Shown piece by piece: positions 5,084 through 9,029 of a DNA stretch of 64,000 bases. The notes below the pieces were generated by a model, which was not told the origin of the DNA, ran no database searches, and saw only the letters and a list, made by a program, of their open reading frames with translations. Numbering within the stretch: the stretch's first letter is position 1; each line of letters opens with the position of its first letter. A program made the translations under genes and the position numbers. The stretch comes from Pacificibacter maritimus (lineage in GTDB: Bacteria > Pseudomonadota > Alphaproteobacteria > Rhodobacterales > Rhodobacteraceae): assembly GCF_003814915.1 (NCBI RefSeq), contig NZ_RKQK01000005.1, positions 1 to 64,000 of the forward strand, in the 5' to 3' direction.

Positions 5084-6376
5084 ATGGTTGATATTGCGAC
5101 GCGTGTTTACAATCACAAATGGAAAATCGACCCTATCGTCCGGTCGTTGATTGATACCGATTTTTACAAACTTCTGATGTGCCAATCCGTGTTTCGCAAC
5201 AAGCGTGACACGCAAGTCACCTTTTCCTTGATCAACCGTTCCAAATCCATCCGATTGGCTGATCTCATCGACGAAGGCGAGCTGCGCGAACAGCTTGATC
5301 ATGTGCGCTCTTTGTCCCTGACGCGCGGCGAAAGCACATGGTTGCGCGGCAATACATTCTACGGCAAACGCCAGATGTTTCGCCCTGACTTTATGGAATG
5401 GTTCGAAAACCTGCGCCTTCCGCCCTATCACCTCGAGAAAATCGACGGCCAATATGAACTGACATTCGAGGGCACTTGGCCCGAGGTTATGCTCTGGGAA
5501 ATCCCCGCTTTGTCCATTCTGATGGAGTTGCGATCCCGCGCTGTGACGGGCGATATGGGGCGCTTTGAATTGCAAGTGCTCTACGCCCGCGCCATGACCC
5601 GCGTCTGGGAAAAAGTCGAAAAACTGCAACCTCTGCAAGGCGTCAAAATCGCCGACTTCGGCACGCGTCGTCGCCATTCCTACCTGTGGCAAGACTGGTG
5701 CGTCCAAGCCATGACCGAAGGGCTGGGTGACAGCTTTGCTGGCACCTCCAACTGCCTGATTGCGATGAAGCGCGATATGGAAGCCGTGGGCACCAACGCC
5801 CATGAATTGCCCATGGTCTATGCGGCCTTGGCCGAAAATGACACCGCCCTGCGCCAATCCCCCTATGACGTGCTGGCCGATTGGCACGAAGAACACGAAG
5901 GCAACCTGCGCATCATCTTGCCCGACACCTACGGTACCAAAGGCTTTCTGTCCGGTGCCCCCGATTGGCTCGCGGGCTGGACAGGCATCCGCATCGATTC
6001 CGGTGACCCCGCCACAGGCGCTGAAACCGCGATCAAATGGTGGACCGAACGGGGTGAAGACCCGACCCAAAAGCTGGTGATTTTCTCAGATGGCTTGGAC
6101 ACCGATAAAATCATCGAGTTGCACAGCCAGTTTGCGGGCCGCGTCCGCACGTCTTTCGGCTGGGGCACATTGCTGACGAATGATTTCCGAGGGTTAACCG
6201 AAAACAACGCCCTCGCGCCGTTTTCTATTGTCTGTAAAGCCGTTGAAGCCAACGGCCGCCCCACCGTGAAACTCTCCGACAACCCGAACAAAGCCATGGG
6301 CCCCGCCGATGAAGTCGCTCGGTACAAACGGGTGTTTGGGGTTGGTGAGCAGGTCGCGATGGATGTGGTGGTTTAA
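5084..6376 (+). CDS. pncB: Nicotinate phosphoribosyltransferase
   Basis: Converts nicotinate and PRPP to nicotinate mononucleotide using ATP. The 430 residues show the family N-terminus ([14 protein letters not shown]), the motif FGTRRRHSY, and GTNAHEL, where His240 is the expected autophosphorylated histidine. The phosphate-binding stretch IRIDSGDP and the FSDGL motif follow. The ATG is preceded by AAGGGAG. The stop overlaps the convergent end of the accessory operon (6373-6831) by four bases. Confidence 0.96.
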
Positions 6377-6831
6377 ACGAACAAGGGCTTTGGAAGCTTG
6401 CGTTTACATTTTTCTACTTTATGCAGAAAAGAAAAGCATGTCATTTCGATAGATGCGATCCGATTTAAATCGGGAGTGCGATTGAGTTGTCCATATTTAC
6501 CGCCAGTCACGGCTTCATGGAATCTATTCAAGTCAGTCTCTACGGCTTTCAAAGAAGCGGACTGTGAGTCAAAAAGATGTCGAATAATTGTACCAACATA
6601 TGAAAGCCTACCATTGATAGAAGCCTCCAATTTTTTGGCGCTTTCATCGCTGCCATCAATTGCCCAGTATGTGTTGGCCAAAGTTCTTATTTCAAAGATG
6701 CTTTCGCGAATTTCTTTGATGTCGTAGTCAACTTGCGAGACGCTAGAGCGCCCACGGAAAGCGAAAGCGTCAAGAATTCGAGCAATTAGAAACCCTATAG
6801 CTGCCGCGATTACCGTCTCAAAAAAGCTCAT
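6373..6831 (-). CDS. Membrane-anchored hypothetical protein, third gene of the HATPase/STAS-like operon
   Basis: No family recognised. One N-terminal hydrophobic segment at about residues 4-24 ([21 protein letters not shown]) is followed by a mostly helical, charged cytosolic-looking region of about 125 residues, partly coiled-coil-like, ending in a basic tail ([12 protein letters not shown]). Its ATG overlaps the stop of the DUF4325 gene by ATGA, so it is translationally coupled as the last gene of a three-gene operon. It may be the membrane effector or anchor of that module; this is inference from position and topology only. Confidence 0.75.
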
Positions 6832-7151
6832 TGTTTTGCTTTTGCGCCATCTATGTACTGTTGGATTAGTACCAAAAACCTTTCCAGTGTCGGGTCATTC
6901 GTTTTGATATCGAAGGTTTCTTTTATTTGCTTTGCTGTATAGCCAGCTCTAACAAGGCCACCAAAGGCTTCTTCAAGAAATGAAGATGGGTAGCCAAGGG
7001 CGCCATCCAACAAAACTTGGGCTTTTTGATGTGCTTTTAGCACGGGCACCAAGTGCCTATTTCTAAAGTCTGTACCGTTAGCTGGGCCGTCTTCGGGATA
7101 CCTTCCGCCTGGGTAGGGTGAAAACTCTTTTGCGATTTCTATAGTGTTCAT
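6828..7151 (-). CDS. STAS-like domain protein (DUF4325 family)
   Basis: This 107-residue protein matches the DUF4325 pattern: IEIAKEFSPYPGGRYPEDG, then TDFRNRHLVPVL, a LLDGA strand, then SSFLEEAFGGLVR at about residues 57-69. The family is STAS-like and typically encoded next to GHKL-ATPase proteins, as here. The ATG at 7149-7151 overlaps the stop of the upstream ATPase gene (ATGA) and begins the conserved MNTIEIAKEF; an upstream in-frame start at 7178 would lie inside the ATPase gene and is rejected. By analogy with SpoIIAA/SpoIIAB pairs it may be a binding partner or phosphorylation target of the ATPase. That role is inferred. Confidence 0.88.
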   Translation of the reverse strand: MNTIEIAKEFSPYPGGRYPEDGPANGTDFRNRHLVPVLKAHQKAQVLLDGALGYPSSFLEEAFGGLVRAGYTAKQIKETFDIKTNDPTLERFLVLIQQYIDGAKAKQ

Positions 7152-8206
7152 CACGTGGCTCCAACTGGTATGGTCCATTCAACGAGCGTGCCCCCAATAT
7201 GGTTGGACCGATCACGCTTAGATATTTGTTCTCCTTGCCTATATAGTACTTCTCCGCAACCACTCAAGATTCGTAGTTTAGCACCGGCCATGGACTCTAC
7301 TGGAGCAACTATATCACGTAATCCTTGTCCGTGACCATCCGAGCGCGAAGTTCTTGATACTTTAAGCGCAGCTTCGATCATGGTTGAATCTGATTTAAAA
7401 AGTGTTGAGCCGACGGGCGTGACAGAACTTAAAGACGCAACGACCTTCTCGTACAATTTCGAACGCGGTAGAGTTTCTGAAATGCCAACACCCTGATCAT
7501 AAACAATAAACTTAACTGTTTGTTCTTTTGGCGACCAACTTGCTGTTGCCCACCAAGTCTTGTGCAAAGGAGGGTATTGGAATGAGAATTTTTCTGGATA
7601 GCCGTGCAAAACGCCATTATATGCGGCTTCCAAAACGGCACAATACATCACGGGATCTTGCTCAAAGGCGCTTGCAATTCCACTTAAGCGGCTTGAAATT
7701 TCTGCGATTCGCTCGCCGTTAGCGGAGTCACAACTAATTAACTCCAGCACGGAAATGGCTTCCCCGCTAAAGCCATGGCACAAACTGTGACTATTTGGCG
7801 TTCCAAGCAACGCAAAGAAACCGATGTCATGAAGTAGGCTTTTTACATCATCGCTCCAGCTTGAGTAATTCTTGAGAACAAGTTTAACATTTTTAATTTT
7901 TTGCCAGCGGTCGATTTCAGCAGCTAAAACGAGAGCCGCGCCGACAGATATCGCTTCTATAGTTTCGAAATCCAAAAAGACCTTTCGATGTCCAGTTTTT
8001 GGGCGCTTAAACGCTGCCTGCTTGATTGACTGCAAAAAGGTGACGGTAGCGTCATAGTTTTGTGAGAAACTAAATATTGAAGGCGCGATGACTCGTATGT
8101 ATCCCGAGTATTTTTTTGATTTTGGGTCTCGGCGTAAGCTTTTTTGTAAGCGCTTTCTTCTATAGAAATCTCTTCTCAAACAACTTGTTCTATCAATATG
8201 TTTCAA
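7151..8206 (-). CDS. STAS-like plus GHKL-type ATPase (HATPase) protein
   Basis: The 351 residues begin with a basic segment (1-35). A region at about 72-135 (VFLDFETIEAISVGAALVLA) reads like a STAS fold. A GHKL ATPase follows: N-box with Glu193, Asn197 and His201 (EAAYNGVLH), G1 box DQGVGI at 237-242, G2 box GHGQGL at 291-296, and a closing GGTLVEWTIPV strand. There is no phosphoacceptor-His kinase box or transmembrane segment. The start is an apparent TTG with GGA 9 bases upstream; no ATG lies nearby. It is the first gene of a three-gene ATGA-coupled operon just downstream of arfB. Anti-sigma-factor-like or defence-type signalling is possible; the function is unknown. Confidence 0.87.
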   Translation of the reverse strand: MKHIDRTSCLRRDFYRRKRLQKSLRRDPKSKKYSGYIRVIAPSIFSFSQNYDATVTFLQSIKQAAFKRPKTGHRKVFLDFETIEAISVGAALVLAAEIDRWQKIKNVKLVLKNYSSWSDDVKSLLHDIGFFALLGTPNSHSLCHGFSGEAISVLELISCDSANGERIAEISSRLSGIASAFEQDPVMYCAVLEAAYNGVLHGYPEKFSFQYPPLHKTWWATASWSPKEQTVKFIVYDQGVGISETLPRSKLYEKVVASLSSVTPVGSTLFKSDSTMIEAALKVSRTSRSDGHGQGLRDIVAPVESMAGAKLRILSGCGEVLYRQGEQISKRDRSNHIGGTLVEWTIPVGAT

Positions 8207-8243
8207 TATCTATTCCACAATTAGTTTTCTCAAAAAAGCTATT

Positions 8244-8660
8244 TCACTCAACCCGCCCACGCAACGCCTTAATCTCTCCGCGTTTCTTTTTCCCGTCCAA
8301 ACGTCTGCGCACCGATCCTTTGGTCGGCTTCGTCTTGACCCGAAACTTGGGCCGCTCGGTCGCTTGTTTTATCAGCGCCACCAGACGCTCGCGGATGAGT
8401 TCTCGGTTTCGGACTTGGGACCGCGTTTCATCGCATTGCAGGATGATCGCGCCGTCTTTGGTCCAGCGGCGGCCTGCCAATTTGCGCAGGCGGATTTTCA
8501 CGGCGGGCGGCAGGTTGGGGGAGCGGTCTGCCTCAAACCGCAGTTCCACCGCTGACGACACTTTGTTGACGTTCTGCCCCCCCGGACCAGAGGCGCGCAT
8601 GAAGCTTTCAGACAGCTCCCAATCGGCCAGTTCGATGGTCTCATTGATGCGCAGGGACAT
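8244..8660 (-). CDS. arfB: Alternative ribosome-rescue factor / peptidyl-tRNA hydrolase ArfB
   Basis: Releases stalled ribosomes by hydrolysing peptidyl-tRNA. The 138-residue protein carries the GGQ motif at 27-29 (MRASGPGGQNVNK) and the basic C-terminal tail (KPTKGSVRRRLDGKKKRGEIK) that enters the empty mRNA channel. The frame is open further upstream to 8831, but the conserved MSLRINETIELADWELSE start at 8660 fits the family length. The accessory HATPase operon starts 37 bases downstream on the same strand. Confidence 0.93.
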   Translation of the reverse strand: MSLRINETIELADWELSESFMRASGPGGQNVNKVSSAVELRFEADRSPNLPPAVKIRLRKLAGRRWTKDGAIILQCDETRSQVRNRELIRERLVALIKQATERPKFRVKTKPTKGSVRRRLDGKKKRGEIKALRGRVE

Positions 8661-9029
8661 GGTGGTTTCCGTGGTTTTGTGGTGATTTGGCAGCGGCTGC
8701 GTGCGTGGCACCTTTAAAACATGTAAAGTGAGGGGGGCGTCAAGCGTGCAAAAGTTGCAAAGACGCGCCACAAAGTCGTGCAAGATTTTGAAAGAGGCTG
8801 AAAATCTAAAAGGGCTGCCTAGATAAGACAACCCTTCGAGAATTTAAGGAAATGGGCCAGTTAGGTTGCCCAATCGAGAGTGTTTCGCTTACAGGGTTGC
8901 CTCTAAGCGGCGGCCCTCCCGACTGTCTTGACCTCATTCACCATAATAACTCTAGACACTGGTCCACCTCCTTTCGATTGTTTGCCGATAAGGTGATGGT
9001 GCCATAGATTTGGTATATAGCAAGTAAAA
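8661..9029. other. Intergenic stretch between arfB and the YhhQ-type gene
   Basis: About 370 bases without a conventional gene. It contains the 18-codon ORF at 8903-8959 and the imperfect inverted repeat between 8824 and 8900. The part at 8661-8820 would allow an N-terminal extension of arfB but does not look protein-coding. I see no tRNA and no clear T-tailed terminator. Confidence 0.6.
8903..8959 (-). CDS. Candidate 18-codon small ORF with ideal ribosome-binding site
   Basis: On the minus strand AAAGGAGGTGGACCA is followed by GTG; the AGGAGG core (8967-8972) lies exactly 7 bases before it. The frame reads MSRVIMVNEVKTVGRAAA and stops at TAG. Such a strong Shine-Dalgarno in an otherwise gene-free 370-base gap argues for a translated peptide or a leader. 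Downstream, copies of GGCAACC and a facing GGGTTGTC (about 8824-8900) could form a hairpin. I cannot name it. It could also be part of a structured RNA that uses an SD-like sequence for another purpose. Confidence 0.5.
   Translation of the reverse strand: MSRVIMVNEVKTVGRAAA

What the first reader, a model, noticed from the sequence alone, without database searches (positions are those of the whole stretch)
6373..8206. Three-gene HATPase / DUF4325 / membrane-protein operon in a core locus
Directly seen: the three genes overlap by ATGA at both junctions, the first combines a STAS-like half with a complete GHKL ATPase, the second is a DUF4325 STAS-like protein, and the third has one N-terminal membrane segment and a helical soluble part. 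They sit between arfB and pncB and look more A+T-rich than their neighbours, as an inserted module would. Known: GHKL ATPases and STAS proteins pair in sigma-factor partner-switching systems. Inference: the ATPase senses or phosphorylates the STAS-like partner and the membrane protein is output or anchor. A defence role is possible but I have no evidence for it.
Basis: partly seen in the sequence, partly recalled or inferred. Interest (0 to 1): 0.75.

Follow-up and report, generated by a model that had tools for sequence, protein, structure and literature searches.

The report
Mobile kinase–STAS–membrane-protein defence module
Three overlapping bacterial genes form a compact mobile unit, shared with prophages and plasmids, that looks like a virus-triggered switch: a kinase, a small protein it probably phosphorylates, and a membrane protein that probably acts on the cell, making it a new version of a recently described defence system.

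Summary
The three genes are real and form one system. A is a STAS-like domain plus a complete GHKL kinase, B a DUF4325 STAS-like protein, and C a protein with one N-terminal hydrophobic segment leading into a predicted four-helix bundle. In 180 related loci A lies beside B for 171 of 182 B genes, and a C profile hits only beside B (172 of 182). The module is patchy and mobile: 1 of 20 genomes of its genus, yet found in phage contigs beside CI-type repressors, on plasmids and beside restriction genes. Here it sits at a pncB–arfB site where relatives carry different, mostly A+T-rich cargo, or almost nothing. Some relatives outside the genus carry Old, dCTPase or HEC-05 genes after pncB. A and B are profile-level homologues of the kinase and STAS protein of VapKSC-type operons, a published anti-phage system (PMC13373217), but C is not the VapC nuclease. 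Best reading: an infection-triggered kinase phosphorylates B, which frees membrane-anchored C to stop growth or exclude phage. Phosphorylation, trigger and toxicity are inferred, not shown. New variant of a known kind.

The parts
7151..8206 (-). Gene A: 351-aa STAS-like + GHKL serine-kinase-like protein (TTG start; relatives also begin MK[KR]...)
   Evidence: (phrog_3364 E 1.1e-47)
7808..8101 (-). STAS-like half of A, about residues 36-133
   Evidence: AlphaFold2 strand/helix order; Pfam STAS E 0.051, below cut-off; alignment with VapK-type kinases
7157..7738 (-). GHKL ATPase/kinase half of A, about residues 157-350; N box 7598-7630, G1 7481-7498, G2 7322-7333
6828..7151 (-). Gene B: 107-aa DUF4325 STAS-like protein, presumed kinase substrate and holder of C
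   Evidence: (PF14213 E 1.3e-7)
6981..6986 (-). Codons of Ser56-Ser57 of B, the STAS phospho-acceptor position by alignment
   Evidence: Ser57 in 14 of 14; Ser57 in 183 of 183, most fetched by a pattern that contains this Ser
6373..6831 (-). Gene C: 152-aa membrane-anchored helical protein, presumed effector
6757..6813 (-). Hydrophobic segment of C, residues 7-25 (Kyte-Doolittle mean 2.14)
6377..8243 (.). Variable cargo site between the 3' ends of pncB (5084-6376 +) and arfB (8244-8831 -)

Best explanation
A mobile three-gene immune module of the kinase-STAS type. In a resting cell the STAS-like protein B holds C inactive. A, a SpoIIAB-like GHKL serine kinase with its own STAS-like sensing half, is switched on during phage infection or DNA damage (by analogy with VapK and CapK, by single-stranded DNA). 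It phosphorylates B at the helix-cap serine (Ser57, or neighbouring Ser56). Phosphorylated B lets go of C, a single-span membrane-anchored four-helix protein facing the cytoplasm, which then acts at the inner membrane to arrest growth or block the incoming phage. Shown here: gene structure, three-way linkage, homology of A and B to VapK/VapS-type proteins, motif conservation, mobility and context. Inferred: phosphorylation, trigger, B-C binding, topology, toxicity.
For: Linkage: A lies within 400 bases upstream of B for 171 of 182 B genes; C lies beside B for 172 of 182 and nowhere else in 16,969 ORFs. Co-evolution: distance correlations A-B 0.45, A-C 0.66, B-C 0.45 over 106 modules, none reached in 1000 permutations each. 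Homology: A versus a set of seven VapK-type kinases, hhalign probability 99.4%, E 6.4e-22; B versus nine VapS-type proteins 96.6%, E 5.6e-10; three loci found through DUF4325 are kinase-STAS-PIN operons of the VapKSC layout, so VapS-type proteins are DUF4325 too. SpoIIAB is the best solved fold for A (1til E 4.2e-4). Ser57 invariant. Published mechanism for VapKSC: VapK is thought to phosphorylate VapS, freeing VapC; about 2-log protection against phage Bas42, lost with VapS S48A (PMC13373217). Mobility and defence context.
Against: No experiment. C resembles no known effector (no Foldseek match at E<=0.001 in PDB or BFVD). 11 of 106 C proteins lack an N-terminal segment above 1.2 on the Kyte-Doolittle scale and 43 of 106 lie below 1.6. 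In the three PIN-linked VapS-type proteins the conserved Ser/Thr aligns with Ser56, not with the invariant Ser57, so the acceptor residue is unsure. The single-stranded-DNA residue of CapK/VapK could not be placed in A. Much of the context evidence lacks a matched control.
Confidence: 0.58

Rival explanations
1. C is the input rather than the output: a membrane receptor or anchor that senses envelope changes during phage adsorption or injection and controls A, and the output is B (free or phosphorylated) acting on an unknown partner.
For: Weak fold matches of C include four-helix ligand-binding domains of chemoreceptors (Tar, Tsr, PcaY, E 0.07-0.6). C evolves fastest of the three (mean pairwise identity 0.17, against 0.25 for A and 0.43 for B) and its distances follow those of A most closely (0.66).
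Against: The chemoreceptor domains are periplasmic, whereas most of C should lie on the cytoplasmic side (basic residues after the hydrophobic segment; inference). The matches are not significant. In the published sister system the third gene is the toxin (PMC13373217).
Confidence: 0.22
2. A prophage lysis/lysogeny controller: the module senses DNA damage for the phage and tunes induction, like an accessory to CI.
For: Repressor-like genes lie in the nearest two upstream genes for 13 of 52 distinct viral modules, against 21 of 856 background gene pairs; among 93 upstream neighbours phrog_4 'transcriptional repressor' hits 16 and CI-like phrog_6201 hits 13 (these overlap).
Against: The same three genes occur on plasmids and in a chromosomal cargo site without phage genes, where there is no lysogeny to control.
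Confidence: 0.08
3. Ordinary partner-switching control of a host sigma factor or stress response.
For: A resembles anti-sigma kinases and B a STAS antagonist.
Against: No sigma factor or PP2C gene beside the window copy; present in 1 of 20 genus genomes; found on phages and plasmids; the same chromosomal site holds defence genes in relatives.
Confidence: 0.05
4. A kinase-controlled toxin-antitoxin module whose main job is to keep its mobile element in the cell, with phage protection a side effect.
For: Same architecture as VapKSC, which its authors describe as a toxin-antitoxin-like system; occurs on plasmids.
Against: Also kept in chromosomes at a site shared with plain defence genes.
Confidence: 0.07

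Closest known systems
VapKSC (Chambers et al., EMBO J 2026, PMC13373217)
   Same: Three-gene operon in the same order; STAS-GHKL kinase homologous to A; STAS protein homologous to B, also DUF4325 in the three operons found here; Ser/Thr at the STAS helix cap; association with defence loci.
   Different: Third gene is a PIN/VapC nuclease there and a membrane-anchored helical protein here (PIN beside B in 0 of 182; C versus PIN profile probability 0.3%). The kinases of this module form their own branch. Acceptor serine probably shifted by one residue.
CapK-CapS (same paper)
   Same: STAS-GHKL kinase followed by a STAS substrate, associated with immune genes and restriction systems.
   Different: CapK has an N-terminal HTH and CapS a C-terminal winged HTH and acts as a repressor. 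Pfam gives no HTH in A or B, and B is 107 aa with only a short C-terminal part.
SpoIIAB-SpoIIAA / RsbW-RsbV anti-sigma switches
   Same: GHKL serine kinase fold and STAS partner with a serine at the helix cap.
   Different: A carries an extra STAS-like half; no sigma factor; mobile module with a membrane gene.
Lambda RexAB (recalled, not searched)
   Same: Position beside the CI repressor in temperate phages; sensor plus membrane protein.
   Different: No homology claimed; three genes with a kinase-substrate pair.
Francisella prophage genes Fhv_0046-0048 (PMC7924643, one table passage seen)
   Same: 293-aa protein related to the Marinobacter phage AS1 protein, then DUF4325, then a 125-aa protein with a transmembrane segment, listed after the CI repressor and before the integrase.
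   Different: Listed there as hypothetical, with no function proposed in the passage seen.

Membership tests
VapKSC | First gene: STAS plus GHKL kinase of the VapK kind | tested here: met
   hhalign 99.4%, E 6.4e-22 against seven kinases, three of them next to PIN genes
VapKSC | Second gene: STAS protein with a conserved Ser/Thr acceptor | tested here: met
   hhalign 96.6%; Ser57 invariant, Ser56 Ser in 161 of 183; the exact acceptor is unsure
VapKSC | Third gene: VapC-like PIN nuclease | tested here: not met
   PIN beside B in 0 of 182; C versus PIN probability 0.3%; predicted all-helical fold
VapKSC | Kinase activated by DNA damage/ssDNA; protection against phage | not testable with these tools
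   needs biochemistry and plaque assays
CapK-CapS | HTH on the kinase and winged HTH on the STAS protein | tested here: not met
   no HTH family for A or B in Pfam at E<=1
GHKL serine kinases (SpoIIAB/RsbW type) | Conserved N, G1 and G2 boxes and the GHKL fold | tested here: met
   motif residues at 0.94-0.99 in 172 sequences; 1til E 4.2e-4
Anti-sigma partner switching | A sigma factor as the regulated partner | tested here: not met
   neighbours of the window copy are pncB and arfB; other loci not searched systematically
DUF4325 (PF14213) | Profile match above the curated cut-off | tested here: met
   31.6 bits against 23
PADLOC-DB 2.0.0 defence families | Match to a listed model | tested here: not met
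   0 families for A, B and C at E<=1; the library dates from 2023

The most novel reading that the evidence does not exclude
A large, so far undescribed family of prophage- and island-borne immune systems in which a phage-triggered serine kinase releases a membrane-anchored helical effector from a STAS-type antitoxin: a phosphorylation-controlled counterpart of RexAB, and proof that the kinase-STAS unit is a general trigger onto which different effectors (RNase, repressor, membrane protein) have been bolted.
Probability: 0.5. Interest if true: 0.78.

Novelty: new variant of a known kind. Interest (0 to 1): 0.66.

Why it matters
It would turn DUF4325, a family 'of unknown function', into the substrate arm of a modular bacterial immune switch, add a membrane effector to a system known so far with an RNase toxin or a repressor, and offer a compact three-gene operon in which sensing, signalling and killing can each be tested. 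The pncB-arfB site also looks like a small defence hotspot of this bacterial family, useful for finding further systems.

Tried and rejected
Chance ORF neighbours: rejected by the linkage and co-evolution tests. C as a PIN nuclease: rejected. C as a known fold: PDB sequence search (best E 0.16) and Foldseek in PDB and BFVD gave nothing significant. The best BFVD entry (E 0.015, TM 0.65, 159 aa) has no name; that it is the phage AS1 homologue is a guess from its length. Complex modelling was not possible (single chains only, two jobs). A first scan of genome contigs with A alone found no relatives, because its six peptide patterns were too specific. Promoter-like and terminator-like matches (8 and 5 found, 2.9 and 3.8 expected) and the tRNA scan (none) settled nothing. 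Rival kinds considered: sigma-factor control, prophage induction control, plasmid addiction (see rivals). Padloc scans of cargo covered 10 proteins in the genus and 10 proteins from 8 of 29 family loci that I chose for A+T-rich or odd-looking cargo; no control site was scanned. The repressor test used an iterative phmmer set that is probably incomplete. The kinase tree is a quick tree on 37 of the module's kinases, drawn at random apart from the window's, with long branches.
Full report
WHAT IS THERE. Three genes on the minus strand fill the space between the 3' ends of pncB (nicotinate phosphoribosyltransferase) and arfB (RF-1 domain). Gene A (7151-8206) encodes 351 aa, gene B (6828-7151) 107 aa, gene C (6373-6831) 152 aa. 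B starts inside A's stop codon (TGATG, 1-base overlap), C starts inside B's stop (ATGA), and C's stop overlaps that of pncB tail-to-tail. The interval is 43.6% GC in a 50.5% GC window.

THE PROTEINS. A: the AlphaFold2 model (mean pLDDT 85.6) shows a strand-helix-strand-helix-strand-helix N-terminal half (residues 36-133), in keeping with a STAS-like domain (Pfam STAS only E 0.051), followed by a GHKL half. The best solved folds are SpoIIAB (1til E 4.2e-4, 1l0o 6.7e-4, 1th8 1.8e-3), and the best PDB sequence matches are RsbW and SpoIIAB, weak at E 0.06-0.12. N-, G1- and G2-box residues are 0.94-0.99 conserved in 172 sequences. B: PF14213/DUF4325 (E 1.3e-7). Its profile's top PDB match, not significant (E 0.32), is a STAS protein aligned at the Ser-Ser-Phe motif. 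Ser57 is Ser in 14 of 14 of the first alignment and 183 of 183 later; most of the latter were fetched with a pattern that includes this serine. C: model with mean pLDDT 95.9, one long helix (3-56) carrying the hydrophobic segment 7-25, then three helices; no significant structural match.

ONE SYSTEM. In 180 related loci, 182 B genes were found; 171 have an A gene directly upstream. Of the 11 without, four have B at the first base of the locus. A first C profile found 128, a second one 172 of 182, with no hit anywhere else in 16,969 ORFs. Distances between modules correlate across the three genes (A-B 0.45, A-C 0.66, B-C 0.45; 106 modules; 0 of 1000 permutations as high in each). An N-terminal hydrophobic segment is present in 95 of 106 C proteins at a mild threshold and 63 of 106 at a strict one.

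PATCHY AND MOBILE. A is found in 1 of 20 genomes of the genus, 9 of 295 of the family and 8 of 398 of the phylum, the window's own genome counted each time. It occurs in Marinobacter phage AS1 (1 of 50,697 phage records matched A), directly followed by B-like and third genes, with an annotated Cro/CI-type gene two genes upstream on the other strand, and on plasmids of Novosphingobium, Vibrio and Leptospira (3 of 72,556 records). An Acinetobacter plasmid carries B and C with a shorter ORF annotated in front. B relatives were found in 169 viral-contig stretches and 284 genome-contig stretches (80 kept of each). In a quick kinase tree, 37 kinases of this module fall on one branch (support 99) apart from three VapK-type kinases and five of six other kinases; one long-branched other kinase falls inside. 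Viral, plasmid and chromosomal copies are mixed, and the window's nearest rows are a Pseudorhodobacter and a viral contig. The window's family is probably Rhodobacteraceae-like: family genomes G186, G223 and G264 match named Nioella, Paracoccaceae and Marinovum contigs in length (inference).

WHERE IT SITS. In viral contigs the upstream neighbours are often repressors: of 93 proteins scanned (of 100 listed), phrog_4 'transcriptional repressor' matches 16 and CI-like phrog_6201 matches 13, sets that may overlap. In an independent count, 13 of 52 distinct modules have a repressor-like gene among the two nearest upstream, against 21 of 856 background pairs. Downstream neighbours (92 of 101 scanned) include integrases, but also portal, tail and terminase proteins. 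In genome contigs, 99 nearest neighbours of 71 distinct modules include type I methyltransferase and specificity subunits, AbiLi, ThsC, MzaA and Mad5 (the number of neighbours with any hit is not given by the tool and there was no control).

THE pncB-arfB SITE. pncB is in 20 of 20 genus genomes. Of 19 relatives, 15 have arfB within the fetched stretch: one with a 105-base gap, 14 with 895-1699 bases of cargo, 13 of these 14 at 0.406-0.482 GC and one at 0.61. The cargo differs: Abi_2/AbiD (1.7e-55; PADLOC AbiD 1.4e-72), GmrSD_N and HNH as two overlapping ORFs, HATPase_c_3, AAA_16, a ParA-like ATPase, an M78 peptidase, an HTH protein, a STAS-GHKL protein alone in two genomes, and several with no Pfam match. 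Of 10 cargo proteins scanned with PADLOC, 6 match at E<=0.01, several only weakly. In 29 further family loci, arfB lies within the 1.5-kb flank in 8 (gaps 25, 30, 39, 216, 941, 942, 943 and 1055 bases). Among 10 proteins from 8 loci that I selected as odd-looking, 8 proteins from 6 loci match PADLOC at E<=1e-5: Old 3.1e-151, dCTPase 3.5e-136 and again in a second locus, HEC-05 3.1e-156, PDC-M53 and a weak mREase_IV. The remaining loci look like ordinary G+C-rich core genes or were not scanned. In most of these the far boundary (arfB) was not seen, so 'after pncB' is the accurate wording. One family genome (L255) carries a kinase-STAS pair of a different branch after pncB, with what looks like arfB beyond it (read by eye).

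WHAT IT WORKS LIKE. The closest described system is VapKSC in Chambers et al. 2026 (PMC13373217; I read the abstract, the sections on the gene pair, on VapKSC and the discussion, and passages). There, VapK (STAS-GHKL) is thought to phosphorylate VapS (STAS), releasing the VapC PIN nuclease. The kinase step was shown with the related CapK/CapS and is modelled for VapK. The operon gave about 2-log protection against phage Bas42, lost with VapC D28A, VapS S48A or VapK F54A. A search for DUF4325 across the phylum (26 of 299 genomes, 28 matches) turned up three kinase-STAS-PIN operons (L228, L229, L231), as well as this module (C profile in 5 of 28), kinase-STAS pairs and single proteins in which a GHKL domain is fused to DUF4325. 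Profile comparison links A to VapK-type kinases (99.4%, E 6.4e-22; 3 of the 7 kinases in that set are PIN-linked) and B to VapS-type proteins (96.6%, E 5.6e-10), but not C to PIN (0.3%). I could not compare with the published VapK/VapS sequences themselves, so 'VapK-type' rests on operon layout and domains.

MECHANISM. Shown: the three-gene unit, homology, intact kinase motifs, invariant acceptor-position serine, mobility, defence-rich surroundings. Inferred: that A phosphorylates B, that infection or ssDNA is the trigger, that B holds C, that C faces the cytoplasm and is toxic at the membrane. Against: in the PIN-linked VapS-type proteins the conserved Ser/Thr aligns with Ser56 while the invariant residue here is Ser57, C has no recognisable effector fold, and a minority of C proteins lack a clear hydrophobic segment.

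NOVELTY. DUF4325 occurs in 2 papers of the library; one is the Francisella prophage table in which the three genes are listed as hypothetical (one passage). Searches for kinase-STAS immune systems returned only PMC13373217 as relevant among the listings shown. DefensePredictor (PMC13092281) mentions HATPase once, in an abbreviation list, and STAS not at all in the main text (supplements not available). The library holds open-licence papers only, so earlier description elsewhere is possible. I file it as a new variant of a known kind: the kinase-STAS chassis with a membrane protein in place of VapC.

Noticed in passing
window 6377-8243 and loci L203-L220, L264-L291: The 3' side of pncB looks like a small defence hotspot in this bacterial family: empty or nearly empty in some genomes, Old, dCTPase, HEC-05, AbiD or GmrSD-type genes in others.
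   Followed up: partly
L255 (G219:C12): A kinase-STAS pair of a different branch, with no third gene recognised, sits after pncB in another genus.
   Followed up: partly
L212 and L219 (G682, G689): A lone 338-aa STAS-GHKL protein fills the pncB-arfB site in two genomes of the genus, with no STAS partner beside it.
   Followed up: partly
L224, L234, L237: Single proteins of about 335-352 aa that appear to join an HTH-like start, a GHKL domain and a C-terminal DUF4325 domain.
   Followed up: no
L093 and L177: Two B genes of this module in one locus; in L093 two A-B pairs in tandem.
   Followed up: no
L215 1482-2863: GmrSD N-terminal and HNH parts lie on two overlapping ORFs at the pncB-arfB site, so the gene may be split or broken.
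   Followed up: no
L042: A protein with an NPPF-type methyltransferase motif lies upstream of the module, suggesting insertion in a restriction locus.
   Followed up: no
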